A stretch of 64,000 nucleotides of DNA from Sedimentibacter sp. zth1. Its GTDB lineage: Bacteria; Bacillota; Clostridia; Tissierellales; Sedimentibacteraceae. Of this stretch, positions 34,307 through 50,062 are shown piece by piece; positions within the stretch are counted from its first letter, which is position 1, and each line of letters starts with the position of its first letter. The notes under the pieces were generated by a model. That model made no database searches and was not told the origin of the DNA. It worked only from the letters and a program-made list of their open reading frames with translations. The stretch is taken from the NCBI RefSeq assembly GCF_017352195.1, contig NZ_CP071445.1, positions 2,480,001 through 2,544,000 of the forward strand, given 5' to 3'. The position numbers were made by a program, and so were the translations under genes.

Positions 34307-35113
34307 TTACAATTTATATATTTTAGGTTTTCTGTGTTTAAGTAAAGGTAACTCATTTCTAACTTTGTCAATAAAACCTAAATCAATTTCAACAACTGCA
34401 GATTGTTCTTTTTCATCTAATCTATGCACGATATTTCCCCATGGAGAGGCAATAATAGAGTTGCCATAAGAAATATAGCTTGAGTTTATGTCTCTCGCAG
34501 GGGCTACTCCTACTGTAAAAACTTGATTATCTGCAGCACGTTGCCTGAATAAAAGTTCCCAGTGTGCAGGGCCTGTTGTCATGTTAAAAGCAGCAGGAAC
34601 AATAATTATACGCGCACCGTCTAATACCATATTTCTTGAAAGCTCCGGAAATCTTATGTCATAGCAAATACAAACACCAATTTTACAAAACTCTGTTTCA
34701 AATACGGTGCTTGAATCTCCTGCTGTTAGTGTGTCAGATTCTTTAAAATGCTGACCACCCTCCACATCAATGTCAAATAGATGTGCTTTTCTGTGTTTAC
34801 TAATAAGATGTCCTTGTCTGTCAAATATAAATGATGTGTTATATATTTTTTCTCCTTCTTTTTCAGGTATAGATCCTGCAACTAAATAAACATTATTATT
34901 TTTAGCAGAATTAGACATTGCATTATATGTAAATCCATTTATAGATTCAGCATATTTTTTAAAATAATAGTTTTTATAAGGACAGTTGAACATTTCAGGA
35001 AGTATAATTATATCTGCACCCTGCAATGCTAAAGAGTTGATGCTTTTTATAGCATTATTGACGTTCAGTTTTTTATCTTCGTATATATTGGATTGAATTA
35101 TTCCTAATTTTAT
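34307..35113 (-). CDS. Nitrilase/omega-amidase family hydrolase with non-canonical start
   Basis: A 268-aa carbon-nitrogen hydrolase closest to NIT2 omega-amidases. The triad is visible: Glu in ILPEMFN, Lys in SKHRKAHLFD, Cys in GVCICYDIRFPE. The N-terminal beta strand IKLGIIQSN is needed for the fold, but its frame has no ATG, GTG or TTG; an in-frame TAG lies just upstream. An ATA at 35111-35113 sits about 7 nt after AGAGGT and is the best start. A TTG at 35026 would remove the first 29 residues and has no ribosome site. Transcribed toward the LysR gene. Confidence 0.78.
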   Translation of the reverse strand: MKLGIIQSNIYEDKKLNVNNAIKSINSLALQGADIIILPEMFNCPYKNYYFKKYAESINGFTYNAMSNSAKNNNVYLVAGSIPEKEGEKIYNTSFIFDRQGHLISKHRKAHLFDIDVEGGQHFKESDTLTAGDSSTVFETEFCKIGVCICYDIRFPELSRNMVLDGARIIIVPAAFNMTTGPAHWELLFRQRAADNQVFTVGVAPARDINSSYISYGNSIIASPWGNIVHRLDEKEQSAVVEIDLGFIDKVRNELPLLKHRKPKIYKL

Positions 35114-35198
35114 TTTAAGTACCTCTTTCTAAAATATTTTATATAATTATTATACACATACAATTAATGTGTATGTCAATAGAAAACTAAATAAAATA

Positions 35199-35226
35199 AA
35201 AAAAATCGCGATTTCTCGCGATTTTT

Positions 35227-35228
<2 letters not shown>
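35199..35228 (-). terminator. Terminator of purA
   Basis: AAAAAATCGCGA-TTTC-TCGCGATTTTTT: a perfect 12-bp stem with T-runs on both strands. Confidence 0.9.
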
Positions 35229-36594
<1,366 letters not shown>

Positions 36595-36781
36595 CTAAAA
36601 ATTTTTGTATTTTGAATATATTTTATAATTAAGTATATAAACTATTCTTTTCAAAATTTCTATAAATATTACCATCTATAAAATAATTTCTATTAAAAAA
36701 GCATTTATCGTAAATGCACGACATATTATTACAAAAGCTAAATAAAAAAAATGATAAAATATAAAAAATGGAGGTGGTATT

Positions 36782-37063
36782 ATGAAAAATAGTAAAGAGT
36801 TAAATAGTATGCTTTATGACAATCTATTAAGACAAATAAACAAAGAAGGAATCAATGTAAAGAATACATTTTTTTACTTAGCAAAAGAGGAAATTCAAAT
36901 TATATATAATACTTGTTTAGATTTATTTTTGAAGCAAATTATTAACGTTTCAGTACATGATGAAAAATGCATAAGACTTATCAAAAGGAATGAATTATTA
37001 GAAATTGTTAAAGAAGAGGATAAAGTATTATATGATAAACACGTAATGTCAGTTTATACGTAA
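36782..37063 (+). CDS. 93-aa protein of unknown function, linked to the RiPP unit
   Basis: A 93-aa, mostly helical cytoplasmic protein with no recognisable family. It has a strong GGAGGTGGT ribosome site and its own terminator. A truncated near-identical copy lies at 38768-38960 upstream of the second precursor, so this gene was part of the tandem duplication that carries the RiPP precursors. That linkage suggests, without proof, a regulatory or immunity role. The truncated copy keeps its reading frame but changes several residues (for example VSVHDE to ISVHDE). Confidence 0.65.
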   Translation: MKNSKELNSMLYDNLLRQINKEGINVKNTFFYLAKEEIQIIYNTCLDLFLKQIINVSVHDEKCIRLIKRNELLEIVKEEDKVLYDKHVMSVYT

Positions 37064-37076
37064 CATTTACAGCAAT

Positions 37077-37126
37077 AAAAAAGTATGTTTGATAGATTCT
37101 AAATCATATTAATCATACTTTTTTTA
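37077..37126 (+). terminator. Terminator of the 93-aa gene
   Basis: AAAAAAGTATG pairs with CATACTTTTTTT, with a partly paired inner region (TTTGATAGA/TCTAAATCA). Confidence 0.7.
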
Positions 37127-37437
37127 ATGTTATCTACATTGTTAACCTATTTCCTACTTATTACTTTTATCAAATATATCATTAAGAGCTCTTGTCTAGT
37201 CTAATTTGATGAGATATCAAGAAATAATTATTCGACATTATGTATTATGAAATTGTATTATATGTATTATAATACATGACTGCTTATATAAAAATAATAT
37301 ATTAGTATTGGAAACTACTTGATATACAAGTTCACATAGTAATATTATTAAAAAAGCAAATATACAATAAAAATCTATAATCAAGTGCTAAATGAATAAA
37401 TATAGATAGCTATTTATATCTACACATTTAAAAATAA
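37127..37437. other. Long AT-rich upstream region of precursor A1
   Basis: No gene is supported here. It is AT-rich, partly conserved with 39023-39337 upstream of precursor A2 (shared blocks include AAGAAATAA, ATTCGACATTAT and AATACATGACTG). Conservation of non-coding DNA may simply reflect the recent duplication. Confidence 0.5.
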
Positions 37438-37446
37438 TGGTATAAT
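37438..37446 (+). promoter_or_regulatory. Extended -10 promoter of precursor A1
   Basis: TGGTATAAT, with no good -35 box, lies 97 bp before the start codon. It is identical to the element at 39338-39346. Confidence 0.55.
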
Positions 37447-37487
37447 ATTGAATATAAAAGAGAACATAATTTATTGCTCAATAAATG

Positions 37488-37798
37488 CCTACAAGATAAA
37501 AGTAGTACTAAATATTGTAAGATAATAATAGGAGGTAATGTGATGGAAAATAATAAATTTAAAGCTGTTAAAAAGGTATTAGATGAAAATAATGTTAATG
37601 CAATGAATGACGAACAATTTGTAAAGTTATTGGAAGAAGAAAATGTAAACAGTGATGGTTCTAAAAATGCTTTAGAGCAGACAGGTGTGGTTCCATTAAA
37701 TGATGGTTGTGGAATAATGGGTTGCTAAAAAGCGTTAAAAAGTAGCATAATAATTATTAAAGCAGTTTAGTAATTAAATACATACTTTATCTTGTAGG
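37488..37798 (+). repeat. Inverted repeat bracketing precursor A1
   Basis: CCTACAAGATAAA (37488-37500) and its exact complement TTTATCTTGTAGG (37786-37798) flank the precursor ORF, enclosing 285 nt. Pairing extends by GTA/TAC with one bulged base. Inside, just before the right arm, a second hairpin TAATTATTAAA-GCAG-TTTAGTAATTA (37751-37776) lies after the stop codon. In mRNA the arms would close a loop containing the whole ORF. Confidence 0.7.
37543..37728 (+). CDS. RiPP precursor peptide A1
   Basis: A 61-aa peptide: a charged helical leader (about residues 1-36), the motif LLEEENVNSDGSKNALE at about 29-45, and a short tail ending GCGIMGC with Cys56 and the C-terminal Cys61. The last 16 residues differ strongly from those of precursor A2 while the leader is nearly identical, typical of precursor leader/core division. 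ATG 37543 follows AGGAGGT; a longer frame upstream has no ribosome site. Its radical SAM partner gene downstream is broken, so it may depend on the enzymes of the second copy. Confidence 0.75.
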   Translation: MENNKFKAVKKVLDENNVNAMNDEQFVKLLEEENVNSDGSKNALEQTGVVPLNDGCGIMGC

Positions 37799-37834
37799 TA
37801 ATTTTAAAAAATTAGTATAAGGTTTGGAGATAAA

Positions 37835-38071
37835 ATGAGTATTATTAAAAAAGAAACTTCTTTAGGACTATTATACTATAGTGATATTACATATAGGTAT
37901 TTGCTATATTATAATGGAAAAATTATTAACGATGAGGCACAAGTAGAGAGGTTATTTGAAGACAATAGAATACCTTTTAGAGTTCAATTCGAGATAACAG
38001 AAAAATGTAATTTTTCTTGTTACTACTTATGATTTTACAGATATTTTAAAATATATAAATACTAAAAACTT
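37835..38071 (+). pseudogene. Radical SAM maturase remnant (copy 1)
   Basis: The first 64 residues match the intact enzyme at 39735 almost exactly, through two cysteines of the CxxxCxxC motif. The frame then hits TGA because about 125 bp are missing. A further 45 bp of homology follows, up to the joint with the IS3 remnant at about 38062-38071. No third cluster cysteine, barrel or SPASM domain remains, so it is not a working enzyme. Confidence 0.88.
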
Positions 38072-38385
38072 CATTATTCTTCTGATTCGTTTTAAATTAT
38101 ATATGATTCCAAACTGACCTTCTAACGTCATTTTAATCTGTTCAGCACCTTTTTTTGATTTTTAAAATTATATGCTTCTAAGATATTTCTTTGATTTCCT
38201 CATCATTAATATCTTGTTTTTCCCTTGAAATTTGTGATTTTAATGAGAAGTAGTTTTAATATCCAGAACGGGATACACCTACTAATTTACATAAATAGCT
38301 TATCATATTCTTAAGTTTATATTTTTTAATCACTAAATTTATCAGTATAAATTTTTGCTTAATTGACAATCCTACTTCTTTATCA
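38062..38385 (-). pseudogene. IS3 orfB (integrase) fragment
   Basis: The minus strand reads YKLKNMISYLCKLVGVSRS, the HTH-like N-terminus of IS3/IS150 orfB, then a stop. Later pieces (SLKSQISREKQDINDEE; KRIRRIMKF) lie in shifting frames. The DDE catalytic core is absent, so it cannot transpose. Confidence 0.7.
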
Positions 38386-38714
38386 TCCCCCTTTCTAAAA
38401 GTTCGATTTTTTTTAGCAATTTATTTTCAGCTTTCAATAAACTATTTTTAACTTTTAGTAGCGTATATTTCTCTTCTATTGATAATTCTTTTTTGCTCGG
38501 GCTTCTTAAATTCTTTTTCCTTGTATTTTGTAATCCATCTACCCCATCTTTTTTATAAGCTCTACGCCACCGCTTTCCAGATGAGTAAATTTGATTTGGT
38601 CCGAGAATTTCTATATCAAATCCACACTCTTCAAACATATACGTTGTAGGCTTGCGACTTTCATTTTCAGTTATAAAAATGCGTTTGGGTTCATCTCTCT
38701 TTTTCTATTATACA
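38372..38714 (-). pseudogene. IS3 orfA (helix-turn-helix) fragment
   Basis: The minus strand encodes a typical OrfA C-terminal half: KRWRRAYKKDGVDGL followed by a Leu/Lys-rich coiled coil (about 88 residues intact). The original ATG at 38712-38714 (MYNRKR) is split from the rest by what looks like a 2-base insertion in AGAGAGAT. An internal ATG at 38638 leaves an open frame, but a functional role is unlikely. Confidence 0.7.
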
Positions 38715-38767
38715 TAAAAATACCCTATTGGGTAGATTTTTTAAAAATTGTCTATACTATAGGGTAC

Positions 38768-38960
38768 ATTTTACTTAGCAAAAGAAGAAATTCAAGTTAT
38801 ATATAATACTTGTTTAGATTTATTTTTAAAACAAATTATTAACATTTCAGTACATGATGAAAAATGCATAAGACTTATCAAAAGGGATGAATTATTAAAA
38901 ATTGTTAAAGCAGAAGATAAAGTATTATATGATAAACACGTAATGGCAGTTCATACGTAG
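38768..38960 (+). pseudogene. 5'-truncated copy of the 93-aa gene
   Basis: Directly after the IS end the frame continues as FYLAKEEIQVIYN and runs to the same stop as the intact gene at 36782. The first 30 or so codons were lost to the IS insertion or deletion. Terminator 38975-39022 follows. Confidence 0.85.
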
Positions 38961-38974
38961 CATTTTACAGCAAT

Positions 38975-39022
38975 AAAAAAGTATGTTTGATAGATTCTAA
39001 ATTATATTAATCATACTTTTTT
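38975..39022 (+). terminator. Terminator after the truncated 93-aa copy
   Basis: AAAAAAGTATG pairs with CATACTTTTTT, the counterpart of 37077-37126. The DNA from 39023 to 39337 is AT-rich with no supported gene. Confidence 0.65.
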
Positions 39023-39337
39023 ATTAATGTTATCTACATTATTAACCTATTTCCTATTTATTACTTTTATTAAGTACATCATAAGGTACTTTTGTTCAGT
39101 TTAATTTAATGAGACACCAAGAAATAAAAATTCGACATTATATAACAAATAATTGTATTATACGCATTAAAATACATGACTGTTCATATAAAAATAATAT
39201 ATTATCATTGGAAACTATTTGATATACATAACTTATATTAATATCAGTAAGAAAGTAAATATACAATAAAAATCTATAATCAAGTAATAAATGAATAAAT
39301 ATAAATGGCTATTTATATTTACACAATTACAAAATAA

Positions 39338-39346
39338 TGGTATAAT
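39338..39346 (+). promoter_or_regulatory. Extended -10 promoter of the main RiPP operon
   Basis: TGGTATAAT lies 97 bp before precursor A2 and probably drives the genes to 48360. No -35 consensus is seen, so an activator may be needed. Confidence 0.55.
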
Positions 39347-39387
39347 ATTGAGTATAAAAGAGAACATAATTTATTGCTTAATAAATG

Positions 39388-39698
39388 CCTACAAGATAAA
39401 AGTAATAATAAATATTATAAGATAATAATAGGAGGTTACATGATGGAAGATAATAAATATAAAGTAATTAAAAAGGTATTAGATGAAAATAATGTTAGCA
39501 CAATGAATGACGAACAATTTGTAAAATTATTAGAAGAAGAAAATGTAAACAGTGATGGTGCTAAAAATGCATTAGAAGATATAAGTGCAGGTTTCTTATG
39601 TGGTGGTTGTGGAATAACTGGTTGCTAAATAGCATTAAAAAATAGCATTGTAATTATTAAAGCAGTTTAGTAATTAAATACATACTTTATCTTGTAGG
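39388..39698 (+). repeat. Inverted repeat bracketing precursor A2
   Basis: CCTACAAGATAAA (39388-39400) and TTTATCTTGTAGG (39686-39698) enclose 285 nt holding the whole precursor ORF, with an inner hairpin at 39651-39676 after the stop codon. The right arm ends 36 nt before the radical SAM start codon. Confidence 0.7.
39443..39628 (+). CDS. RiPP precursor peptide A2
   Basis: A 61-aa peptide. Residues 1-45 closely match A1 (KKVLDENNV, MNDEQFVKLLEEENVNSDG). The tail changes to a Gly/Cys-rich end: FLCGGCGITGC, with Cys53, Cys56 and C-terminal Cys61. No Cys occurs in the leader, so the tail is the likely site of thioether or other radical SAM chemistry. ATG 39443 is 7 nt from AGGAGG; the adjoining ATG at 39440 is also possible. 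First gene of the working operon. Confidence 0.82.
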   Translation: MEDNKYKVIKKVLDENNVSTMNDEQFVKLLEEENVNSDGAKNALEDISAGFLCGGCGITGC

Positions 39699-39734
39699 TT
39701 ATTTAGAAAAATTAGTATAAGGTTTGGGGATAAA

Positions 39735-40823
39735 ATGAGTATTATTAAAAAAGAAACTTCTTTAGGACTATTATATTATAGTGATATAACATATAGGTAT
39801 TTGCTATATTATAATGGAGAAATTATCAACGATGAGGCACAAGTAGAGAGGTTATTTGAAGACAATAGAATACCTTTTAGAGTTCAGTTCGAGATAACAG
39901 AAAAGTGTAATTTTTCTTGTTACTACTGTTATGCCGAGTCACTAAAATGCCAGAAAGATTTAGAAACAGATGATATTATGAAGATTATTGACAAGCTTGA
40001 CGATATGGGAGTTGTATTTTTGGAAATTACAGGTGGAGAAGTATTATCAAGGTATGATTTCTTAGATATTATTAAATATATAAATACTAAAAACTTAATC
40101 GTTTCTATTTTTACTAATTCCAGTCAGTTAAATGACGAAATAATTTATCAACTAAAAAAAGGAAATGTAATGCATGTAAGTACATCATTATTAGCTCCAA
40201 ATGAAGAAATATGTGATAAATTAACTGGTGTTCAGGGAAGCTTTAAAAAAATAATTAACGGAATAAATTTATTAAAAAACAGCGGCTTAAAATTCAGCAT
40301 AAATAGTCCATTGACAAAACCAAACATAAATATGCTGAAGGAGTATAGAAAATTAGAAGAAAAATTGGGTGTAAAAATTGATACAACAATTAATCTTTGT
40401 GCATCGTTTGATGGATATGATAAAGTAAAAAAATATTCATTAGATAATAAAGATGTCAATCTTTTGAAGGAATTTTTTCCATACTTAGTTGGTAATGAAA
40501 ATTTACATATTGTAAATAATTGTTCTGCACTAAAATCTAAATTTGCGTTAGATAGTTGCGGAAATATTATGCCATGTATGAAGTACAGAGTAAAATTAGG
40601 CAACATTTTGGATGATGATTTAATTGATGTCTGGGACAGTGACTTAGCTATATCCACATATAATAAGATTTATGATATACCTGATGATTGTACAAGTTGT
40701 AATATGAAAAAATATTGTAAATACTGTCCAGGTTTAATTTTGTACTATGAGAATAAAAGTGATTTTTGTCTCAATGCAAATATACTTAAAAATATATGTG
40801 AAAGTGTGGTTAGTTATGTATGA
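39735..40823 (+). CDS. Radical SAM/SPASM peptide maturase 1
   Basis: A 362-aa enzyme. The radical SAM cluster motif is Cys58-x3-Cys62-x2-Cys65 (KCNFSCYYC). The SAM-binding ITGGEVL lies near residue 97. A Cys-rich SPASM region (about 257-350: DSCGNIMPC, CTSCNMKKYCKYC) would hold auxiliary Fe-S clusters. The N-terminal 55 residues are too short for a standard RRE leader-binding domain. It sits just after precursor A2, so it likely modifies that peptide. The start follows a weak GGTTTGGGG site. Overlaps the next gene by 8 bp. Confidence 0.9.
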   Translation: MSIIKKETSLGLLYYSDITYRYLLYYNGEIINDEAQVERLFEDNRIPFRVQFEITEKCNFSCYYCYAESLKCQKDLETDDIMKIIDKLDDMGVVFLEITGGEVLSRYDFLDIIKYINTKNLIVSIFTNSSQLNDEIIYQLKKGNVMHVSTSLLAPNEEICDKLTGVQGSFKKIINGINLLKNSGLKFSINSPLTKPNINMLKEYRKLEEKLGVKIDTTINLCASFDGYDKVKKYSLDNKDVNLLKEFFPYLVGNENLHIVNNCSALKSKFALDSCGNIMPCMKYRVKLGNILDDDLIDVWDSDLAISTYNKIYDIPDDCTSCNMKKYCKYCPGLILYYENKSDFCLNANILKNICESVVSYV

Positions 40824-42057
40824 TACACTACAATGCAAATTAAATCCTAATATACAAATTAAAAAATTAAGGAACGGAAAAAGCTATTTACTAGTAAACA
40901 ACTATGGTGAAGATATTTATCCTATATTTTTAAAGGATAATGTCATTAAATTTATATCATCTATAACAACAAATGAGTATGTGAACAATAAAGAAAATAG
41001 ATATACCGATTTAATAAATATTTTGTATAATCAAAATATTTTAGTAGATGAGTTTAATAATCAAAATAAAGTAAAATATAAATCTGAAAAAGATATAACA
41101 AAGTTGAGAGTTTTAGCGCTAGAGACGAGAACACCATTATATGCAAAATTTGAAATAACCTATACCTGCAATTACAAATGCAAATACTGTTTTATAAGTG
41201 GTTCTAAGAATAAAGTTCTTAGATATAAGGAAATAGAAAAGGTTTTGTATGAACTCAGCTTATCTGGTATAAATGAGTTGTATTTAACTGGTGGAGAACC
41301 GTTTACTCACCCTGATATACTAAAAATAATTGACTACTGCTCGAAACTTAATTTCAAGGTTATTATTCAGACTAATGGGTTTTATATAACAGAAGAAATT
41401 GCTAAAATTTTATCTTCATATAAAAACATTAGTATAAGTATCTCCTTTCATTCAGTTGATGAAAATCAATTTGATAATTTTACGGACACAGTTGGTTCTT
41501 ATAGAAAGACATTAGAATCAATCAAAATATTAAAAAAATATAATGTTGATTTATTGTGTAAATGTTGTGTAACATGTGAAAATGAAAATAATATTAAAGA
41601 TACTATACATTATTTTGAAGAAAATGACATTAAGTTTAGTTTGTTTACACAAATTTTGCCTAACGTAAATAATGAGCTAAGCACAAGGGAGTATTGCATG
41701 AATAACGAGACTATTTCTTGGCTGTATGAAAATAACTATTTAAAATTTATCAAATCTGTTTGTTCAGCATTTAAAGATAAATTTTGGGTATCTCCATTGG
41801 GGGAAATATATCCATGTGAACTGTTCCGGCATTCAGTCGGCAATCTATTAAATAGTAGTTTTAAAGAGATATGGGAAAATGAAGAGTCGCTAAAATTTGT
41901 AATTGACAAATTATATTCAAATGAAGAAAAGTGCATAGATTGTCAATATTCTAAATGGTGCAATAAATGTTTGGCATACAAATACTTTGATAACTGGACA
42001 GGCTATTTGGAACAATTTTGCCAAAAAGCAATGACAGTAAAAAAACTATATAGTTAG
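40816..42057 (+). CDS. Radical SAM/SPASM peptide maturase 2
   Basis: A 413-aa enzyme. Residues 1-100 form a small N-terminal domain that could be a PqqD-like RRE for leader binding, judged only by size and position. The cluster motif is Cys118-x3-Cys122-x2-Cys125 (TCNYKCKYC), followed by LTGGEPFTHP near 150. The SPASM part near the C-terminus has PLGEIYPCEL and CIDCQYSKWCNKC. ATG 40816 overlaps the end of maturase 1 by 8 bp, implying translational coupling. It shares the fold but only moderate sequence with maturase 1. Confidence 0.9.
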   Translation: MYDTLQCKLNPNIQIKKLRNGKSYLLVNNYGEDIYPIFLKDNVIKFISSITTNEYVNNKENRYTDLINILYNQNILVDEFNNQNKVKYKSEKDITKLRVLALETRTPLYAKFEITYTCNYKCKYCFISGSKNKVLRYKEIEKVLYELSLSGINELYLTGGEPFTHPDILKIIDYCSKLNFKVIIQTNGFYITEEIAKILSSYKNISISISFHSVDENQFDNFTDTVGSYRKTLESIKILKKYNVDLLCKCCVTCENENNIKDTIHYFEENDIKFSLFTQILPNVNNELSTREYCMNNETISWLYENNYLKFIKSVCSAFKDKFWVSPLGEIYPCELFRHSVGNLLNSSFKEIWENEESLKFVIDKLYSNEEKCIDCQYSKWCNKCLAYKYFDNWTGYLEQFCQKAMTVKKLYS

Positions 42058-42138
42058 TATTTATATGATAACAAGCTTATATTGAGTTGAGCATAGTATA
42101 AGGATTACATAATTATTTTTATTGAGAGGGTGAAAACA

Positions 42139-43104
42139 ATGAAATTCAGGACACTAACGCTGCTAATAACATATAAATGCAATGCAGAATGTGATATATG
42201 TGTATTTTGCTGTAATAAACAAAAAAATGACAAAATGAACCTAGATGATGCATATAGATATATAGATGAGGCATTTGAAATTGAAAGTTTTGAAAATTTA
42301 GCCATATCAGGTGGAGAACCATTCTTGTTTTTTGAAGATCTTATAAAAATATGTAAAAAAGCACATAAAAAAAACATTCCAATAACAATTAGTACAAATG
42401 GATTTTGGGCTAGCAGTATTGAAAAGACAAGTGAAATTATTGAACAATTAATACTATTAGGTGTAACAAGCTTATATATTAGCGTAGATCAATTTCATGC
42501 TGAATATGTTCCTTATGATTGTATTAAAAACATATTAGTGGTATCTAAAAAATTAAAAATAAGAATAGATTTACATTCAATTATTACTAAAAATAGCTTA
42601 AAGCTTAAACATATTGTTGGAAAATTAGAAGATGAAATTATGAATTATAAAATTGTTCAGTTGCCTTGCGTGGCTTGTGGAAGAGCAAAAGAGAAGATTG
42701 ATGAAAATGATTTTATATACCAAGATTCTATTCCAGTGTATAAATGTACTTATTTAAATACTTTAGTGATAGATTCTTATGGTAAAGCATATCCATGCTG
42801 TGGTGTTACAAATCGTAGTAAATATTTTTTGTTTGATAATGCAAATAAGCATTCTATTGAAGAAATAATTAGTTTTTATAATAATAATATCTATTTAAAA
42901 TTGTTAGAAACATATGGAACAGGATGGTTTTTAGAAAATATAAAAAAATATAAATTAGATGTAAAATTAAAAAATAAATATACAAATGTATGCGAGCTTT
43001 GTGGAGATTTATTTAGTGACGATAATGACATTGAAATATATAGGGCTGCAATTAACAATGAAAAGCAAAAGATGATAAATAAACATGAATTAGTCTGTAA
43101 ATAA
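42139..43104 (+). CDS. Radical SAM enzyme 3 with CxxxCxxCxxCC motif
   Basis: A 321-aa radical SAM enzyme starting almost at once with the cluster motif: Cys14, Cys18, Cys21, plus two more, Cys24 and Cys25 (KCNAECDICVFCC). AISGGEPFLFF follows near residue 60. Later cysteines (LPCVACGR; YPCCG near 216; CELCGD near 290) suggest extra Fe-S sites, but spacing does not match standard SPASM. ATG 42139 is preferred over a GTG at 42130 that overlaps the GAGGG site. It directly precedes precursor B and may act on it. Confidence 0.88.
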   Translation: MKFRTLTLLITYKCNAECDICVFCCNKQKNDKMNLDDAYRYIDEAFEIESFENLAISGGEPFLFFEDLIKICKKAHKKNIPITISTNGFWASSIEKTSEIIEQLILLGVTSLYISVDQFHAEYVPYDCIKNILVVSKKLKIRIDLHSIITKNSLKLKHIVGKLEDEIMNYKIVQLPCVACGRAKEKIDENDFIYQDSIPVYKCTYLNTLVIDSYGKAYPCCGVTNRSKYFLFDNANKHSIEEIISFYNNNIYLKLLETYGTGWFLENIKKYKLDVKLKNKYTNVCELCGDLFSDDNDIEIYRAAINNEKQKMINKHELVCK

Positions 43105-43131
43105 ACATGTAAACATTCATATATTATTTAA

Positions 43132-43456
43132 TAGAAACCATATGATATTTAATTGTATTAATTATAAGCATGTTTTAAAACAAAATTAATGTATAAGGAG
43201 GTGTTGTATGAACAAAGATAAACCAGGAAATTCGAATAAAAGTCAAAAGAAAATATATTCACATGATTGCATAAAACATAATAAAGAAATAGATAATAAA
43301 ATAATAACTTTACTAGATGAAGAAAAGGAAGTAAACAGCGATGGTAATAAGAACAGTGTGACTCATATGGGTTGTTCAAATGCATGCTAGAATACATAAA
43401 AAGATGAAGTTAATTTAAAAAGGGCTTTTGAATTGTAAAATATCATATGGTTTCTA
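43132..43456 (+). repeat. Inverted repeat bracketing precursor B
   Basis: A perfect 19-bp pair: arm 43132-43150 (TAGAAACCATATGATATTT) and its complement 43438-43456, enclosing 287 nt with the precursor B ORF. The sequence is unrelated to the A-type arms, but layout and loop length match. An imperfect hairpin around AAAAGGGCTTTT lies just before the right arm. The right arm ends 24 nt before the ABC transporter start. Confidence 0.75.
43208..43390 (+). CDS. RiPP precursor peptide B
   Basis: A 60-aa peptide with a polar, Lys-rich N-terminus unlike A1/A2. It keeps the motif LLDEEKEVNSDGNKN near residues 35-49, and ends HMGCSNAC with Cys56 and C-terminal Cys60. A further Cys21 is in the leader. 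The shared motif suggests one recognition system for all three precursors, while the shorter tail gives a different product. Strong AAGGAGGTG ribosome site. It sits between radical SAM enzyme 3 and the exporter. Confidence 0.82.
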   Translation: MNKDKPGNSNKSQKKIYSHDCIKHNKEIDNKIITLLDEEKEVNSDGNKNSVTHMGCSNAC

Positions 43457-43480
43457 AGAATCAAACAATTAGGAGGAAAA

Positions 43481-45193
43481 ATGAGGGAATATTTATTTAA
43501 GCATAAGTTGTTGTTTTTTACCTGTATTGTATTAATTAGTTTGCTATGCGTATTAAATGTCTATGTAGCTTTTGTTTTACAAATGATAATTGATTGTGCA
43601 GATAGCTCAAGTATTTCAAAGTTATTAAACGTTTGTTGTTTTGTTGTTATTTTTTTATTTTTAAAGAGAGTATTAGCTTTTGTTTATGAAGTATCTCAAA
43701 ATAGGTATTTATATAAGACACAGTTTGTTTTAAAACAGGATATTTTTAAAAATATAATGAAAAGAAATATTAAATTATTTAAAGATGATAATAGTGCAAA
43801 CTATATATCTGCATTGACCAATGATATAAAGTTAATAGAAAATGATTATTTTTCAAATGTATTACTAATGATTTTATATGTAGTATTGTTTATATTAGGA
43901 GTAATCTCAATGATAAGCATTAATCCTATTTTATGTTTATATGTAACTGTGACATCTATATTGCCTATTATACCTTCGCTTTTATTTGGTGAAAAGGTTG
44001 GAACTAAAAATAAAAAATATTCAGATAGCTTAAGTAAATTTACTGTAAAAATAAAGGATTTATTTACAGGCTTTGAAGTAATAAAAGGGTTTAACATAGA
44101 AACAAAAGCAAACAAAGATTATCAATTAGTTAATGAAGAATGCGAAAATACAAAATATAAGTATGCTGTACTAAAATCTTTTGTAAATATTTTAACTGAA
44201 TACTTAGGCGATATAGTTTTTTTTGGAACAACCGCTATTGGAGTATATTTTACAATAAAAGGTGATATGACAGTTGGTAGTGTTATTGCAGCTACGCAAT
44301 TAATGAATTGTATAGTTAATCCGGTAATGAATTTAAGTGGTTGTATAACAAAATTCAAAGCAATAAAACCAATAAATGAAAAGATAATGAATTTAATTAT
44401 AAACGAGAATATAAAAGATACTGGGATTAGTAAAAAGTTGTTCACAAATAGTATTAGATTTGACAACGTTGAATTTGGATATACTGAAGATAAAAAAATA
44501 CTTAATGGCTTATCATTTGAAATAAAAAAAGGCGAAAAATATGCTATTGTTGGAGGAAGTGGAAGCGGAAAATCAACACTTATAAAATTATTACTAAGAT
44601 TCTATGATGATTTTAACGGACAAATTACAATAGATGAACAAAAAGTAACAGATATTAATTACAATAGCTTATATAATTTAATATCAACTATTCAACAAAA
44701 CGTTTTTATGTTTGATGATACTATTGAGAATAATATTTTACTATACAATAACTATGATTTGCAAACTATGTATGATGTTATTGAGAAGTCAGGCCTTAAA
44801 AACATGGTAGAAGCATTGCCACAAAAAGAAAAAAGTATAGTGGGCGAAAATGGAAGCAATTTATCTGGTGGAGAAAAGCAAAGAATTGCAATTGCAAGAG
44901 CATTAATTAAAGAAACTCCTATTCTTGTATTAGATGAGGCAACTTCGAGCCTTGATAATGAAAATGCATATAACATTGAAAATTCAATATTATCACTAAA
45001 AGAATTAACTTGTTTAGTAGTTACACATAAGTTAAATAAAGAAATATTAATGAAGTACGATAAAATATTAGTTTTGAAAAATGGAAAAGTTGAGGAAATA
45101 GGAACATTTGAAAAATTAATTAATGATAAAAGCTATTTTTACAATTTATACAATGTTGCAGGAACAGACGTGAAAAATTTGATGGTAGTATAA
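43481..45193 (+). CDS. ABC exporter (fused membrane and ATPase domains)
   Basis: A 570-aa half-transporter with six membrane segments in residues 1-310 and the ATPase at 325-570: Walker A GGSGSGKST near 357, signature LSGGEKQRIAIARAL near 462, Walker B ILVLDEATSSLD. It begins directly with the first membrane segment, so it lacks the N-terminal C39 peptidase that cuts leaders in many bacteriocin exporters. It likely exports the mature peptide as a homodimer. Ribosome site AGGAGG. Confidence 0.92.
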   Translation: MREYLFKHKLLFFTCIVLISLLCVLNVYVAFVLQMIIDCADSSSISKLLNVCCFVVIFLFLKRVLAFVYEVSQNRYLYKTQFVLKQDIFKNIMKRNIKLFKDDNSANYISALTNDIKLIENDYFSNVLLMILYVVLFILGVISMISINPILCLYVTVTSILPIIPSLLFGEKVGTKNKKYSDSLSKFTVKIKDLFTGFEVIKGFNIETKANKDYQLVNEECENTKYKYAVLKSFVNILTEYLGDIVFFGTTAIGVYFTIKGDMTVGSVIAATQLMNCIVNPVMNLSGCITKFKAIKPINEKIMNLIINENIKDTGISKKLFTNSIRFDNVEFGYTEDKKILNGLSFEIKKGEKYAIVGGSGSGKSTLIKLLLRFYDDFNGQITIDEQKVTDINYNSLYNLISTIQQNVFMFDDTIENNILLYNNYDLQTMYDVIEKSGLKNMVEALPQKEKSIVGENGSNLSGGEKQRIAIARALIKETPILVLDEATSSLDNENAYNIENSILSLKELTCLVVTHKLNKEILMKYDKILVLKNGKVEEIGTFEKLINDKSYFYNLYNVAGTDVKNLMVV

Positions 45194-45245
45194 ACTTTTA
45201 TATAGTATTTTTTCCTTACTATATAAGGCATTTAAGGAGGATAAT

Positions 45246-46514
45246 ATGTTTAATGTATTAACATCCTATCTTGATAATGGTTTGAAGATTTTATTAAAAA
45301 GAATACCAGAACAAAAAACTATTTCATGCGGTGTTTGGTTTAATCAAGGTTCAAAAAATGAAGATAGCACTAACAATGGTATTTCACATTTAGCTGAGCA
45401 TTTAATGTTTAAAACAAAAAGTAAAAACAGTTCATTAACTATGCAAGAGCACATAGAAGAACTGTTATCATACGGAGCACAATATAACGGTGCTACAACA
45501 AAGGATTATACTTGTTTTTACATAGATGGGCTTAGTAAATATTTTGATAAAATTATAGAAACATTATCATATATGGTAATTAATAAAGAAGAAATAACAG
45601 ATGATATTTTAGAAAATGAAAAACTTATAGTTTTAAGAGAAGCAGAATCATATTTAAATTCATCTAGCCAAATAGGAGAAAGAGTAGGACAGGCGTTGTG
45701 GGGAGACTATAGTTATGGACAACTAACAATTGGTAAAATAGAAATTATAAAAAAAATTACAGCAAATATGTTAAATAATTTAATAAGAACTGCTTATGTT
45801 CCAGAAAATGCAACAATTGTTATCGTGGGTAATCTCGATTATGATAATGCATTAGACAGAATTGTTGAGTATTTTAATAAATGGAGTGATAATCAGAGTA
45901 TAAGTACTTTTAAAGGGGTTTTAGAGAACAACCCTGGAATATATGTAAACAATAAATTTTCAGGAGATCGTTCAACAATTGGAATAGGCTTTTCTTCATA
46001 CTCTGCAAAAGACAGTAGATGTAGATATGTAGATATACTAAAGAATATATTAGTTAAGCCAGGAAGTAATTTGTTTAGGGAGATAAGAGAAAAGAGAGGA
46101 TTGGTATATTCACTAAACGGATTTACTACATCATTATCAGTTATAGGGTATACTGGTTTAGCATTCTCTGCTAATAATGATTTGATGTGTGAAATTATTA
46201 AATATATTATTGATGAGATAAGTAGTTTAAAAAATGGTAACATTGCAGAGGAAATGCTGAAAAAAATGAAAAGAATAAAGGAAACTAGTTTATTATATAG
46301 CTTAGAATCGACATCTGCTCAACTTATGACTATTGGCAAGAGTGCAATATGTGGAAGCATATTTTTACTAGAAGAAGAAGTAAGAGAACTAAATAAGATT
46401 ACTGTTGATGATATTAGGGCTGTTGCTAGTGATATATTTTCAACAGAAAAGTTGTGTATGGCCGTTTTGGGTAACTGTGATATTGATAAAATAATACCTT
46501 TATTAGAATTTTAA
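45246..46514 (+). CDS. M16 family zinc metallopeptidase
   Basis: A 422-aa insulinase-type peptidase. The inverted zinc motif is His48-x2-Glu51-His52 (SHLAEHLMF), with a downstream acidic ligand in LREAESY near 129. The second M16 half has REIREKRGLVYS near 282. It resembles the AlbE/AlbF and PqqF-type peptidases of RiPP clusters and is the best candidate for leader removal, since the exporter has no C39 domain. Only one M16 gene is present, so it may work as a homodimer. Confidence 0.92.
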   Translation: MFNVLTSYLDNGLKILLKRIPEQKTISCGVWFNQGSKNEDSTNNGISHLAEHLMFKTKSKNSSLTMQEHIEELLSYGAQYNGATTKDYTCFYIDGLSKYFDKIIETLSYMVINKEEITDDILENEKLIVLREAESYLNSSSQIGERVGQALWGDYSYGQLTIGKIEIIKKITANMLNNLIRTAYVPENATIVIVGNLDYDNALDRIVEYFNKWSDNQSISTFKGVLENNPGIYVNNKFSGDRSTIGIGFSSYSAKDSRCRYVDILKNILVKPGSNLFREIREKRGLVYSLNGFTTSLSVIGYTGLAFSANNDLMCEIIKYIIDEISSLKNGNIAEEMLKKMKRIKETSLLYSLESTSAQLMTIGKSAICGSIFLLEEEVRELNKITVDDIRAVASDIFSTEKLCMAVLGNCDIDKIIPLLEF

Positions 46515-46537
46515 TCAAAGTATGGAGGTTATAACTT

Positions 46538-47095
46538 ATGAGTGAATGTAATAATACAGCCGATAAATTAAAAATAGACGATGATAATATTATACGTGAA
46601 ATTTTTAGTGGGAAATTGTTAGATATAGTTATAGAATTGATGGACAACCAATTATCTGAACAGCAGTTACTAAAAAAACTTGATATTTACCCTATGAGAC
46701 TGAAATATTATATTAATAAATTACTAGAATACAATATTATTGAGTGTGTAAAAAATGATATTGTAAATCAAAGAGTTAATAATGTTTTCAAGTTGAGAAA
46801 GGATGATATTGATTTAATATTAAATTCGTGTAGTGAACACAATTTAGAATTAAATTTATTATCAGGCATTGAAAAGTACCGAAATATGGTTAAAAAATCT
46901 TTTCAATCTGTTTGTGCAAATCCAGATACAGCTAATAAACAGGCATTTTTAATTATTAGAGTAAGTGATGAAAAAGTGAAAGAATTTAAATGTGAATTAA
47001 ATGAGGTTATAAAAAAATATTCAGAGCTAGAAGATAAAAGTGAAAAAAATAAATATCTTTATATGACATTATTATCAAGATATGATGAAGAGTAA
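46538..47095 (+). CDS. Winged-helix (ArsR-like) protein in the RiPP operon
   Basis: A 185-aa protein. Residues 20-90 look like a winged helix: KLLDIVIELMDNQLSEQQLLKKLDIYPMRLKYYINKL in pattern (helices 1-3), then a wing. The C-terminal 90 residues are helical and charged with no known fold. It may be the cluster's regulator, sensing the peptide or metal, or an adaptor that binds leader peptides, since RRE domains share the winged-helix fold. Ribosome site GGAGGT. Encoded after the peptidase in the same direction. Confidence 0.6.
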   Translation: MSECNNTADKLKIDDDNIIREIFSGKLLDIVIELMDNQLSEQQLLKKLDIYPMRLKYYINKLLEYNIIECVKNDIVNQRVNNVFKLRKDDIDLILNSCSEHNLELNLLSGIEKYRNMVKKSFQSVCANPDTANKQAFLIIRVSDEKVKEFKCELNEVIKKYSELEDKSEKNKYLYMTLLSRYDEE

Positions 47096-47151
47096 ATATA
47101 AGTAATGAAATAAATATAATAATATAATACTAAAAAATTTATGAGGTAAGT

Positions 47152-48360
47152 ATGAAAAATCTTTTAAATAATAGAAATGCCATTTTTTTGTGGATATCAA
47201 GAACAATATCAAGATTTGGAGATGCATTAGAGAGTTTAGCATTAATGTATTTAGTATATGATATTACTGGTTCGGCATTAGCAATGAGTACCGTAATGAT
47301 ATTCAGTATGATACCAAATTTAATTGTAAGTCCAATTGCTGGCGCATTAGTGGACAGGTACAATAAAAAAACGATTCTTTTTATTGCAGAGTTAGTCAGA
47401 ACAATTGCTATTTTTGCAATTCCAGTATTGTGTTGGTTAAATATTATAAAACTGTGGCACATAAATTTAGTTGCTGTGATAGTTTCAATTGCAGAAAGCT
47501 TTTATGAACCTTGTTATGGAGTTACTGTAGCTTTAACTGTTAAAAAAGAGGATTTACCTGTACTAAATTCTGTTGTAACGTTGTCCAATAATATTGCAAG
47601 ATGTGTTGGATATTCTCTGGCAGGAATTATCATGTTTAGTATAGGAAAAAATATATTATTTATATTTGACTCTTTTACATTCTTATTGTCAGCTATATTT
47701 GCATTGTTTTTAAAAATCAATGAAGTAGTTGAAAATAAAAATATTGGTGTTAAGCAAATCGGTACAGATATTGTGAGCGGATTTAAATATTTAAAAAATG
47801 AAAGAATATTAATCGGATTTATAAGCGTATTTCTATTTATGAGTTTACTTATGTCACCACTTATAGAATTTTTACCCATATCACTTAAAAATGTTTTTTC
47901 TTTAAATGAAGCATGGGCGGGAATTCTAATGACGTTGTTCTCAATTGGAACAGTAGTGGGGAGCATATTATATCCTTTTGCATATAAATTAGGTATAAAA
48001 TTTAATGTAGTAGTATTTATTTCATTTATTTCGATAGGTGGCTTAGTTTTAATAAGCACACTAATACCAAATAAAGTAGTAGTGTTATTTATGTATACAG
48101 TATTAGGTATTTTTGTTTCAGTTTTAAATATGTGGACATCTACAGGAATACAACAGGATTGCAACGTTGCATACTTAGGTAGAGTTTCTTCAATAATTTC
48201 AATAGTTGCTACTGCTACAACTCCACTAGCATGCGCAGTTTATGGATTTATTATTGATAGTTTTGGAATTATAACAATTTTCTTTGCTACATCAGTATGT
48301 TTTGTTTTAGCATCTATTGTTTTAAGTACATATACTAGAGCTTCAAAAATAAAAAGTTAA
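47152..48360 (+). CDS. MFS efflux transporter
   Basis: A 402-aa major facilitator with about twelve membrane segments. The loop-2/3 motif is GALVDRYNKK near residue 64, and the start is NRNAIFLWISRTISRFGDAL. It belongs to the EntS/MdtG-like drug and siderophore exporter group. As the last gene of the RiPP operon it may provide self-protection or a second export route; this is inference. Ribosome site GAGGTAAG. Confidence 0.85.
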   Translation: MKNLLNNRNAIFLWISRTISRFGDALESLALMYLVYDITGSALAMSTVMIFSMIPNLIVSPIAGALVDRYNKKTILFIAELVRTIAIFAIPVLCWLNIIKLWHINLVAVIVSIAESFYEPCYGVTVALTVKKEDLPVLNSVVTLSNNIARCVGYSLAGIIMFSIGKNILFIFDSFTFLLSAIFALFLKINEVVENKNIGVKQIGTDIVSGFKYLKNERILIGFISVFLFMSLLMSPLIEFLPISLKNVFSLNEAWAGILMTLFSIGTVVGSILYPFAYKLGIKFNVVVFISFISIGGLVLISTLIPNKVVVLFMYTVLGIFVSVLNMWTSTGIQQDCNVAYLGRVSSIISIVATATTPLACAVYGFIIDSFGIITIFFATSVCFVLASIVLSTYTRASKIKS

Positions 48361-48370
48361 AAATAAAAAA

Positions 48371-48416
48371 AGAGTGTAAAAATATAAATTCTATCATATT
48401 TTTACACTCTTTGCTT
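48371..48416. terminator. Terminator ending the RiPP operon
   Basis: AGAGTGTAAAAATAT pairs with ATATTTTTACACTCT. A good 15-bp stem; it may serve both converging genes. Confidence 0.85.
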
Positions 48417-48450
48417 TTATTTTGCCATAAACATATTAGCATTTGTTTTA

Positions 48451-49442
48451 TTATTCTATATTCTTAACTATTTCCTCTATGCTTTTATAAGTAAATGTTT
48501 TTACTAAACCACAATCATCAAATGTATACTCATATAATTCGAATGTGTCTGCTCTATCAAAATACAAACAAACTAAAAATTCTATAAAATCATAATCTCC
48601 AGGTTCTTCAAATGTATATGTTCTATTTGCGTTCTTGCTTTTTGATTTTATATTGTCGCCTAAAAAATCATAGAAGTTTTTGTAGTTTTCTAATAGGTTA
48701 TTATATATTCTTTCAAAACTTTCTTCTGATATTATTTGTTTTGGCTCATATATAGGGTAGCATATAGTTGCTTTATAATCTTTATTTACAAAAGAAATAT
48801 TACTAAAATCAGTTCCATAATTTTTCTCTAATTCATCTTTTATATATGGAATTTTTACTTCACCAATACTACTACCATAGTATGAATTATATAATTTTAT
48901 TTTGTATATTTCATTGTATCCATTTGCATAAAACCATTTTTCCACATTAGAAAATTCATTGAATCCATCAACCTCATCATACATTTTATTAAGCATTTCT
49001 ATATATGCTTTTTCTTTAATAGCTATCTCTTCTTCTGTGTATTGTACCCATTCAACCTTATTATCTTGATCATCTTGATTTATTTTACTCATTTCTGATA
49101 TTGTTAATCCACATGAATACTTATCAAGTCTATTCATAAAAGTAATAAATTTGAAATCAAAATAATTAAATCCTTTATTCATAAATATGGAACTAAATTC
49201 TAGAATTTCATTTGTACTGCTATTTACCAAAGGACGTTTGAAATATAAATAATTATAATACTTATATGTACCGCTTATCAAATAATTAAATATCTGCTTT
49301 TGTTCCAAATTAAATTGGTTAAATTGTGAAACCAAATTTTGTTGTTCATCGTTTAATTCAGTTGTTTGACTATCTTTATAATTACATGATGTCTGTAGAA
49401 TTATTAAGCATATAAAAATAGATAATAATACTTTTTTAGCAT
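48451..49442 (-). CDS. Putative lipoprotein, split by a -1 shift at A-AAA-AAG
   Basis: The main frame encodes at least 294 residues with no known family, rich in Tyr, Phe, Glu and Asn, and has only a TTG near 49335 as start. The same frame continues upstream into a lipoprotein signal: VLLSIFICLIILQTSC, lipobox Cys then NYKDS. The only good start (ATG 49442 with AGGAGG 4 nt away) reads MLKKYYY and stops after 12 codons. Its codons CTA AAA AAG hold the heptamer A-AAA-AAG; a -1 slip there gives MLKKVLLS and joins the signal perfectly. So it is either a frameshift mutation, a sequencing error, or true recoding. Confidence 0.65.
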
Positions 49443-49465
49443 GTTTCCTCCTAATAATTACATTC

Positions 49466-49792
49466 TTAATTTAATATAGCGCTTGTCCACTCTATATAGC
49501 TATATTCATGAATTTTTTTATAGTCTGATGGTAAAGAATCACCACAAGCACATTTATATGGTGTTTCAAGGTATGTTGTTACAATATGAATAATTACAAA
49601 TTCAATATTGCCATCTGAATTTAGCATTGTACTAGATTTAGTACTTTCATAAGTTTTTTCTTTTGTTGTCATAGTAAAATATTTATGTATCCCATCTTCA
49701 TAACAAGGACATGGTGTAACTGCATACGCAACCGCTGATAATAACATTGATAAAACTAACATCATTAAAATAATTTTTTTTATATTTTTCAT
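49466..49792 (-). CDS. Small secreted protein of unknown function
   Basis: A 108-aa exported protein with a signal peptide at residues 1-24 (cut after VAYA). The mature part has two Cys pairs, CPC near 28 and CAC near 82, which may form disulfides or bind metal. No family is recognised. Strong AGGAGG ribosome site. It precedes the lipoprotein gene by 23 bp on the same strand, so the two likely form an operon. Confidence 0.65.
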   Translation of the reverse strand: MKNIKKIILMMLVLSMLLSAVAYAVTPCPCYEDGIHKYFTMTTKEKTYESTKSSTMLNSDGNIEFVIIHIVTTYLETPYKCACGDSLPSDYKKIHEYSYIEWTSAILN

Positions 49793-49978
49793 TTTTACCT
49801 CCTAGAAAATTTTATTGTTTGTTACTATAAAAATATATATAATTGTTATATCTTTGATAATTTAAAATAATAGCAATTTATATAAAAATTTATAATATTT
49901 ACAATATTTGTTATAAATTATATTTTAACATAATATGTTTTTTTTGTAAATAGTCATAAAATATTATACTACGACATT

Positions 49979-50062
49979 CTATTTTCTTTGAGAGTTTTGG
50001 GTGCTATTAGGTAGGGGGTAATCTGTTATACTAGTCATAGCCTTTGATTGTAAATTTTCCAT
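49979..50062 (-). CDS. Candidate 27-aa small ORF with strong ribosome site
   Basis: ATG at 50060-50062 follows AAGGAGGT with 8 nt spacing, stronger than most genes here. The peptide starts MENLQSKAMTSITDYP and is polar with no Cys or membrane segment. It begins about 20 nt after the T-run of the guaA terminator. It could be a small protein, signal peptide or leader peptide, or chance. No family is known. Apart from this ORF, the 396-bp gap holds only AT-rich DNA. Confidence 0.35.
   Translation of the reverse strand: MENLQSKAMTSITDYPLPNSTQNSQRK

What the first reader, a model, noticed from the sequence alone, without database searches (positions are those of the whole stretch)
37438..48416. 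Uncommon RiPP operon: three radical SAM enzymes, three precursors of two types, M16 peptidase, ABC and MFS transporters
Seen: precursors A1, A2 and B; maturases at 39735, 40816 and 42139 with intact CxxxCxxC motifs; exporter, M16 peptidase, winged-helix protein and MFS transporter in one direction. Known: AlbA/SkfB-type sactipeptide, ranthipeptide and epimerase clusters combine radical SAM enzymes with peptidase and exporter. Inference: this gene set, with three different radical SAM enzymes and two precursor types sharing a leader motif, does not match a well-known class and may carry more than one modification.
Basis: partly seen in the sequence, partly recalled or inferred. Interest (0 to 1): 0.9.

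Follow-up and report, generated by a model that had tools for sequence, protein, structure and literature searches.

The report
Three-enzyme modified-peptide gene cluster
A gut-and-soil type anaerobic bacterium carries an operon that probably makes small cysteine-containing peptides which three radical enzymes cross-link and partly flip to D-amino acids before a protease trims them and a pump exports them; each tool is of a known type, but this combination was not seen in the other genomes examined.

Summary
Window 37543-48360 (+) encodes three precursors of two kinds (A1, A2, B), three radical SAM (rSAM) enzymes at 39735, 40816 and 42139 with intact CxxxCxxC, an ABC exporter without a detected peptidase domain, an M16 protease with intact motifs, a weakly assigned winged-helix protein and an MFS transporter. 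The third rSAM enzyme is a relative of the epipeptide epimerase EpeE/YydG by sequence, fold and donor cysteine, but scores under the family cut-off. The other two are seven-cysteine SPASM enzymes with nearly the cysteine spacing of sactisynthase TrnC. Best reading: a RiPP with two precursor types carrying thioether cross-links on C-terminal cysteines plus one or more D-residues, trimmed by M16 and exported. Link type and epimerised residue are inferred, not shown. The precursor family was found in 1 of 249 searched genomes of the order (its own), and no cluster with this gene set in the neighbourhoods read. New variant of a known kind: interesting, not revolutionary.

The parts
36782..37063 (+). 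93-aa ORF of unknown function at the upstream edge of the duplicated unit; its 3' part recurs before A2. Role in the cluster unknown
   Evidence: no Pfam match at E 0.1
37419..37446 (+). promoter-like site before A1 (extended -10)
   Evidence: 10 of 12; such sites are no commoner in the region than in shuffles (114 against 103.5, sd 10.7)
37488..37500 (+). left arm of a 13-nt inverted repeat around A1
37543..37728 (+). precursor A1, 61 aa, ends GCGIMGC
37786..37798 (-). right arm of the inverted repeat around A1
37835..38032 (+). SAM1', 65-codon fragment of a second copy of SAM1 (not a working gene)
38256..38638 (-). IS-like remnant: two short ORFs, the longer with weak helix-turn-helix matches under the Pfam cut-offs
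   Evidence: IS assignment by eye
39318..39346 (+). promoter-like site before A2 (extended -10)
   Evidence: 11 of 12, same caution
39388..39400 (+). left arm of the inverted repeat around A2
39443..39628 (+). precursor A2, 61 aa, ends LCGGCGITGC
39686..39698 (-). right arm of the inverted repeat around A2
39735..40823 (+). SAM1, rSAM/SPASM maturase, 362 aa; only 57 residues before the first cluster cysteine
   Evidence: Pfam over cut-offs; Cx12Gx4Cx37Cx2Cx5Cx2Cx13C
40816..42057 (+). SAM2, rSAM/SPASM maturase, 413 aa; start overlaps the end of SAM1 by 8 nt
   Evidence: Pfam over cut-offs; Cx12Gx4Cx38Cx2Cx5Cx2Cx16C; gap -8
42139..43104 (+). SAM3, EpeE/YydG-like rSAM enzyme, 321 aa from ATG
43208..43390 (+). 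precursor B, 60 aa, ends GCSNAC
43481..45193 (+). ABC exporter, fused membrane and ATPase domains, no peptidase domain detected
45246..46514 (+). M16 metalloprotease, 422 aa, HLAEH at 48 and REIREKRGLVY at 278
46538..47095 (+). winged-helix-like protein, 185 aa, putative regulator
   Evidence: weak matches only
47152..48360 (+). MFS transporter, putative immunity or export
48369..48412 (.). 19-pair hairpin with a T-run, reported as a terminator on the - strand; may end the operon
   Evidence: 3 terminator-like sites found, 2.0 expected

Best explanation
An operon for a RiPP with two precursor types. Leaders carrying LLxEE..VNSDGxKN bring A1, A2 and B to the enzymes. SAM1 and SAM2, from overlapping genes and probably working as a pair, use SPASM chemistry to link the C-terminal cysteines (GCGIxGC in A, GCSNAC in B) to nearby backbone carbons as thioethers. 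SAM3, an EpeE-type epimerase, turns one or more residues into the D-form. The M16 protease removes the leader in the cytosol, probably near VNSDGxKN; the ABC exporter sends the product out; the MFS pump and winged-helix protein give immunity and control. Shown: gene content, motifs, shared leader, core divergence, epimerase fold with donor cysteine. Inferred: that the enzymes act on these peptides, which enzyme takes which precursor, thioether as the link and its type, residues hit, cleavage site, product activity. My odds for the steps: RiPP operon 0.95, SAM3 an epimerase 0.7, SAM1/SAM2 thioether-forming 0.6.
For: Shared leader: B found by an A-only profile at 21.9 bits, best of 2000 shuffles 10.2. 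Leader conserved, core changed: 12 of 129 against 16 of 54 nucleotides differ, p 0.0012; pN/pS 0.065/0.236 in the leader, 0.30/0.28 in the core. SAM3: YydG model TIGR04078 is the top NCBIfam match, 164.4 bits; EpeE is the best PDB sequence match, E 3e-34; AF2 model with pLDDT 87.5 matches EpeE at Z 36.3, next protein SuiB 18.6; C17, C21, C24, C206, C223, C224, C288 and C291 (counted from GTG 42130) invariant in 10 of 10 aligned rows; C224 sits on the residue changed in the EpeE C223A entry, the proposed hydrogen donor (PMC8326336 section 11). SAM1/SAM2: seven SPASM cysteines spaced almost as in TrnC, Cx11Gx4Cx36Cx2Cx5Cx2Cx14C (PMC12093266, passage); SkfB is the best PDB sequence match of both. 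M16: HLAEH plus R..RG..Y, nearest PDB chain 3hdi, E 7e-43. ABC without peptidase domain.
Against: No biochemistry. SAM3 scores 164 bits against a cut-off of 300; EpeE Asp210 falls on Thr; three relatives of SAM3 lack the donor Cys and the tree gives SAM3 no supported group. SAM1 and SAM2 pass no listed NCBIfam cut-off, and the best models include heme- and cofactor-maturation enzymes. No RRE found: none fits in SAM1, none matched in SAM2, and the SAM2 model was unusable. The last residue of all three precursors is Cys, so that Cys cannot link to a downstream residue as in streptosactin (PMC8172795, passages). Core divergence rests on one pair of genes and fits relaxed constraint as well as selection.
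Confidence: 0.45

Rival explanations
1. SAM1 and SAM2 make something other than S-C-alpha thioethers: S-C-beta/gamma (ranthipeptide) links, carbon-carbon or ether links, or an unlike modification each. The gene plan is as in the best explanation.
For: Weak matches spread over many SPASM models, among them StsB (93.1 bits, sactipeptide), WgkB, AlbA and AhbD for SAM1, none over its cut-off; the enzymes are only 26-29% identical to each other, so they need not do the same thing.
Against: Two or three cysteines in each precursor tail, TrnC-like cysteine spacing and SkfB as best PDB match lean to thioethers; none of this separates alpha from beta links.
Confidence: 0.25
2. Two separate products share exporter and protease: SAM1/SAM2 act on A1 and A2 only, SAM3 on B only or the reverse, so no peptide carries both modifications.
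For: A lies next to SAM1 and was duplicated with it; B lies next to SAM3; outside VNSDGxKN and LLxEE the leaders differ.
Against: The motif is shared by all three, and both kinds of tail have paired cysteines.
Confidence: 0.15
3. SAM3 is not an epimerase but an EpeE-fold enzyme with changed chemistry.
For: Score under the YydG cut-off, Thr at EpeE Asp210, and relatives in L044, L045 and L047 with YPCG in place of YPCC, which shows that the family drifts at the donor site.
Against: SAM3 itself keeps YPCC and the auxiliary-cluster cysteines in 10 of 10 aligned rows, and the fold match to EpeE is far above the rest.
Confidence: 0.15
4. A decaying cluster: IS damage and core drift mean that little or no product is made.
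For: SAM1' is a fragment beside an IS-like remnant; core pN and pS are about equal; the precursor family was seen in 1 of 249 order genomes.
Against: The listed genes from A2 to MFS are open with intact motifs; SAM1 and SAM1' differ at about 5 synonymous and 1 non-synonymous sites in 57 codons, so both copies were held for some time.
Confidence: 0.1

Closest known systems
Epipeptide system (EpeE/YydG, Bacillus subtilis and others)
   Same: SAM3 is a homologue of the epimerase over its whole length, with the three rSAM cysteines, the auxiliary-cluster cysteines and the donor Cys
   Different: epipeptides are reported to use an M50 protease (PMC10885120, passage); here M16. Precursors do not match the YydF family model, which does hit the Macrococcoides precursor. 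Two extra SPASM enzymes
Thuricin CD (TrnC/TrnD, two-component sactipeptide)
   Same: two precursor types and two rSAM/SPASM enzymes; seven-Cys spacing as in TrnC (PMC12093266, part 1 and passages)
   Different: TrnD has a three-Cys twitch, here both enzymes have seven; here an epimerase homologue is added; cysteines lie at the C-terminus, in thuricin CD at the N-terminus of the core
Subtilosin (AlbA) and SKF (SkfB) sactipeptides
   Same: SkfB is the best PDB sequence match of SAM1 and SAM2; AlbA model 70 and 90 bits
   Different: far under the AlbA cut-off of 850 and the SkfB cut-off of 300; no RRE detected
Streptosactin (GggA/GggB)
   Same: short tail with small rings possible; PMC8172795 passages give Cys to residue i+3 links
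   Different: here the last residue is Cys, so at least that link would have to run upstream
   Same: three adjacent SPASM enzymes, the best matches of SAM1 and SAM2 in the order (27-33% identity), an ABC exporter and a 36-aa ORF ending NICGGGCA
   Different: the three enzymes carry PqqD-type RREs; no epimerase homologue and no M16 protein noticed in the 19 kb read. The exporter similarity (43%) says little, as 46-48% relatives sit beside unrelated genes in other genomes
   Same: several rSAM enzymes, a YydG-like enzyme (123.4 bits), an M16-type protein with a PreP C-terminal domain and an ABC exporter
   Different: the YydG-like frame ends early and has YPCG; no VNSDG precursor

Membership tests
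RiPP biosynthetic cluster | ribosomal precursors with a conserved leader and a variable core beside modifying enzymes | tested here: met
Epipeptide (EpeE/YydG family) | score over the curated YydG cut-off (TIGR04078) | tested here: not met
   164.4 bits against 300; Staphylococcus and Macrococcoides controls score 462.6 and 434.6
Epipeptide (EpeE/YydG family) | EpeE fold and catalytic cysteine Cys223 | tested here: met
   Z 36.3 over 313 residues, rmsd 2.1; aligned Cys
Epipeptide (EpeE/YydG family) | acidic residue at EpeE Asp210 (importance inferred from a D210A entry in the PDB) | tested here: not met
   Thr in the pairwise alignment
Epipeptide (EpeE/YydG family) | YydF-type precursor | tested here: not met
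   no match of A1, A2 or B to TIGR04077 at E 1; the model does hit a Macrococcoides precursor
Epipeptide (EpeE/YydG family) | M50 protease | tested here: not met
   the protease in the operon is M16; M50 in epipeptides from PMC10885120 (passage)
Sactipeptide | rSAM enzyme with SPASM or twitch domain | tested here: met
   SAM1 and SAM2 over both Pfam cut-offs
Sactipeptide | S-C-alpha thioether in the product | not testable with these tools
   needs MS/MS or NMR
Sactipeptide | over a curated sactisynthase cut-off (AlbA, SkfB, StsB) | tested here: not met
   AlbA 70.0 and 90.3 of 850; SkfB 60.7 and 67.4 of 300; StsB 93.1 and 68.4 of 625
Sactipeptide | RRE for leader binding | tested here: inconclusive
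   no Pfam match in either N-terminus up to E 10; hhalign probability 0.6% to the L042 RREs; SAM2 model pLDDT 47.7
Thuricin CD type | one seven-Cys enzyme plus one three-Cys twitch partner | tested here: not met
   both SAM1 and SAM2 have seven (rule from PMC12093266)
Thuricin CD type | two maturases forming one complex | not testable with these tools
   gene overlap of 8 nt is only a hint

The most novel reading that the evidence does not exclude
A new RiPP subtype in which one leader motif feeds two unlike cores to a three-enzyme radical SAM assembly, two seven-Cys SPASM enzymes plus an EpeE-type epimerase, giving peptides that carry both thioether rings and D-residues, with the A core diversified by tandem duplication of a precursor cassette flanked by 13-nt inverted repeats.
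Probability: 0.3. Interest if true: 0.65.

Novelty: new variant of a known kind. Interest (0 to 1): 0.45.

Why it matters
PMC8326336 (section 11) says that sactisynthases and rSAM epimerases both abstract the C-alpha hydrogen and differ in whether the radical meets a cysteine of the substrate or of the enzyme. If the best reading is true, this operon sets both on one precursor family, so how a peptide is steered to one fate or the other could be tested directly. The two paper searches that joined sactipeptide or sactionine with epimerase terms listed 1 and 9 papers, none of which describes such a hybrid in title or abstract start; their full texts were not read for this.

Tried and rejected
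Named relatives: the single-protein scan of genome contigs matched 49 stretches, none a relative; a second scan with alignment A3 gave 19 distant loci, of which I read the gene lists of 7 and scanned all 19 for rSAM ORFs only. Viral contigs: 2 distant loci. Plasmids: no DNA match for 37000-48000; SAM3, SAM1, SAM2 and ABC match only distant records; A2 none. Phages: SAM3 none. Rfam: 0 matches over 35000-50000.

Inverted repeat around A1 and A2: four exact copies in the genome, all here, but with one mismatch allowed 13 sites against 10 for the reversed control pattern. RNA folds over the two A genes give z -1.92 and -0.64, so an RNA role is not established. A multicopy mobile-element end is not supported.

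SAM2 structure: unusable. SPASM profile over the class: 4 of 391 genomes at E 1e-55, own included; the other three neighbourhoods show nothing alike. I first took L064 for a second SPASM+M16+epimerase cluster; Pfam gave no M16 there at E 1e-5, so I dropped it. The exporter as a marker of kin clusters: 43% to L042 looked telling, but 23 of 214 order genomes have a match at E 1e-90, own included; in the ten neighbourhoods fetched and one plasmid, one (L120) has an rSAM-like ORF beside the exporter and another (L125) one 8 kb away, and none has this gene set, so I dropped that argument. Macrococcoides plasmid pair of rSAM genes: separate PqqD protein and an unlike 40-aa ORF.

Papers: searches. 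Seen: PMC8326336 passages and section 11; PMC12093266 first of five parts of the text and passages; PMC8172795, PMC10885120 and PMC4289311 passages; PMC3132745 a search for six terms with 0 hits. The rest were listings.

Not inspected: neighbourhoods of G052, G060, G071 and G135, G032 and G238, G081, the gene lists of 12 of the 19 loci, and 13 of 23 genomes other than own or already read.
Full report
The gene cluster is real. In 37543-48360 on the + strand nine open genes follow A1: A2, SAM1, SAM2, SAM3, B, ABC, M16, winged-helix and MFS, with gaps of -8 to 106 nt. Most have a clear ribosome site; SAM2, which overlaps SAM1, has no obvious one. Pfam cut-offs are passed by all three rSAM domains, by ABC, M16 and MFS, and by SPASM in SAM1 and SAM2; SPASM in SAM3 is just under (21.4 of 21.5). 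The genome is 3.13 Mb in one contig with 34 rSAM matches. The species is not known to me.

Precursors. A1 and A2 are 74% identical and B is 38% identical to A1 in the three-way alignment; V, N, S, D, G, K and N of the motif are invariant. A profile of A1 and A2 only finds B at 21.9 bits, third of 613 window ORFs; the best of 2000 shuffles of B gives 10.2. The three-peptide profile finds only these three in 249 genomes of the order, own included. No NCBIfam, Pfam or PHROGs family fits any of them over a cut-off; the best is a PHROG of unknown function for B at E 0.003.

Duplication. The stretch from 36872 to about 38027 recurs 1.9 kb downstream. Identity is 94% in the 3' part of a 93-aa ORF, 86% in the intergenic stretch before A, 91% from promoter-like site to start, 91% in the leader, 70% in the core, 92% after A and 90% over the SAM1' frame, 15 gap columns counted. 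Leader 12 of 129 and core 16 of 54 differing nucleotides give p 0.0012; uncorrected pN and pS are 0.065 and 0.236 in the leader, 0.30 and 0.28 in the core and 0.007 and 0.155 in 57 SAM1 codons. So leader and enzyme were conserved while the core changed, in this one pair. The first SAM1 copy is now a 65-codon fragment beside an IS-like remnant, so A1, if made, must use SAM1 in trans (inference).

SAM3. TIGR04078, the YydG epimerase model, is the top NCBIfam match at 164.4 bits, under its cut-off of 300; two staphylococcal-family homologues score 462.6 and 434.6. EpeE is the only strong PDB sequence match. The AF2 model from ten sequences (pLDDT 87.5) matches EpeE at Z 36.3 and the next protein, SuiB, at 18.6. 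In that alignment C17, C21, C24, C206, C223, C224, C288 and C291, counted from GTG 42130, are invariant in 10 of 10 rows. C224 (C221 from ATG 42139) sits on the residue changed in the EpeE C223A entry, the proposed hydrogen donor (PMC8326336 section 11). Against: EpeE Asp210 falls on Thr, and relatives in L044, L045 and L047 have YPCG. A tree of 19 rows gives no supported group for SAM3; nearest by path is L063 at 39% identity, which has YPCC and lies near a LanM-like gene. SAM3-like genes were found in 10 of 249 order genomes at E 1e-20 and 4 of 391 class genomes at E 1e-30, own included both times, in varied settings. They look like an add-on reused by unlike RiPP systems (inference).

SAM1 and SAM2. 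They are 26-29% identical to each other. Their SPASM cysteines, Cx12Gx4Cx37Cx2Cx5Cx2Cx13C and Cx12Gx4Cx38Cx2Cx5Cx2Cx16C, are spaced almost as in TrnC (PMC12093266). Many SPASM models match, none of those listed over a cut-off. At E 1e-25, 8 and 7 of 249 order genomes match, own included. The best are three adjacent enzymes in L042 at 27-33%, next to a 36-aa ORF ending NICGGGCA and with PqqD-type RREs. Neither window enzyme has a detectable RRE, and the SAM2 model cannot settle it.

Trimming and export. The M16 protein is nearest to PDB 3hdi and has both HLAEH and an R..RG..Y motif, so one gene could make an active enzyme (inference). M16 proteases that remove leaders are known for class III lanthipeptides (PMC10885120, passages). 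No peptidase domain is seen on the ABC protein, which fits cutting before export. Roles of MFS and winged-helix proteins are inferred.

Novelty. I read gene lists of 11 neighbourhoods, 7 named ones (at least one is the same record as an earlier one), 3, and 10 plus one plasmid around exporter relatives. None has this gene set. L044 is partly alike: four further rSAM enzymes, a YydG-like enzyme whose frame ends early and which lacks the donor Cys, an M16-type protein and an ABC exporter. I rate this a new variant of a known kind: known tools, new combination, product unknown.

Noticed in passing
window 37488-37500, 37786-37798, 39388-39400, 39686-39698: A perfect 13-nt inverted repeat (CCTACAAGATAAA) flanks each A precursor gene; the only four exact copies in the genome are here, and all 26 arm bases are kept between the two copies. 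Role unknown.
   Followed up: partly
L104 1979-9296 (own genome, about 2.70 Mb): Another RiPP-like cluster in the same genome: a 57-aa ORF ending CTWWSAQ, three ORFs with CxxxCxxC, an exporter-like ORF and an M55 D-aminopeptidase family protein.
   Followed up: partly
L063 8576-12941 (G442): A YydG-like enzyme (205 bits) between a Val-rich 60-aa ORF and a LanM-like protein: perhaps an epimerised lanthipeptide.
   Followed up: partly
L044 2499-14805 (G018): Four rSAM enzymes in a row, a YydG-like gene with an early frame end, a PreP-like M16 protein and an ABC exporter behind a 42-aa Cys-containing ORF.
   Followed up: partly
L045 8093-8791, L047 7812-8651, L044 8946-9686: A supported subgroup of YydG-like enzymes with YPCG where EpeE has YPCC, so without the donor Cys: perhaps a different reaction.
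   Followed up: partly
L066 3217-5910 and L070 8352-13963: YydG-like enzymes beside ORFs with long leaders ending in GG-type sites; in L066 two YydG-like genes in tandem, in L070 with a SPASM-like enzyme and what look like export genes.
   Followed up: no
L042 8111-12339 (G189): Three SPASM enzymes with RREs for one 36-aa ORF ending NICGGGCA, with IS-like ORFs between it and the exporter.
   Followed up: partly
window 48451-49335 and 49466-49792 (-): Two ORFs behind the cluster without Pfam match at E 0.1.
   Followed up: no
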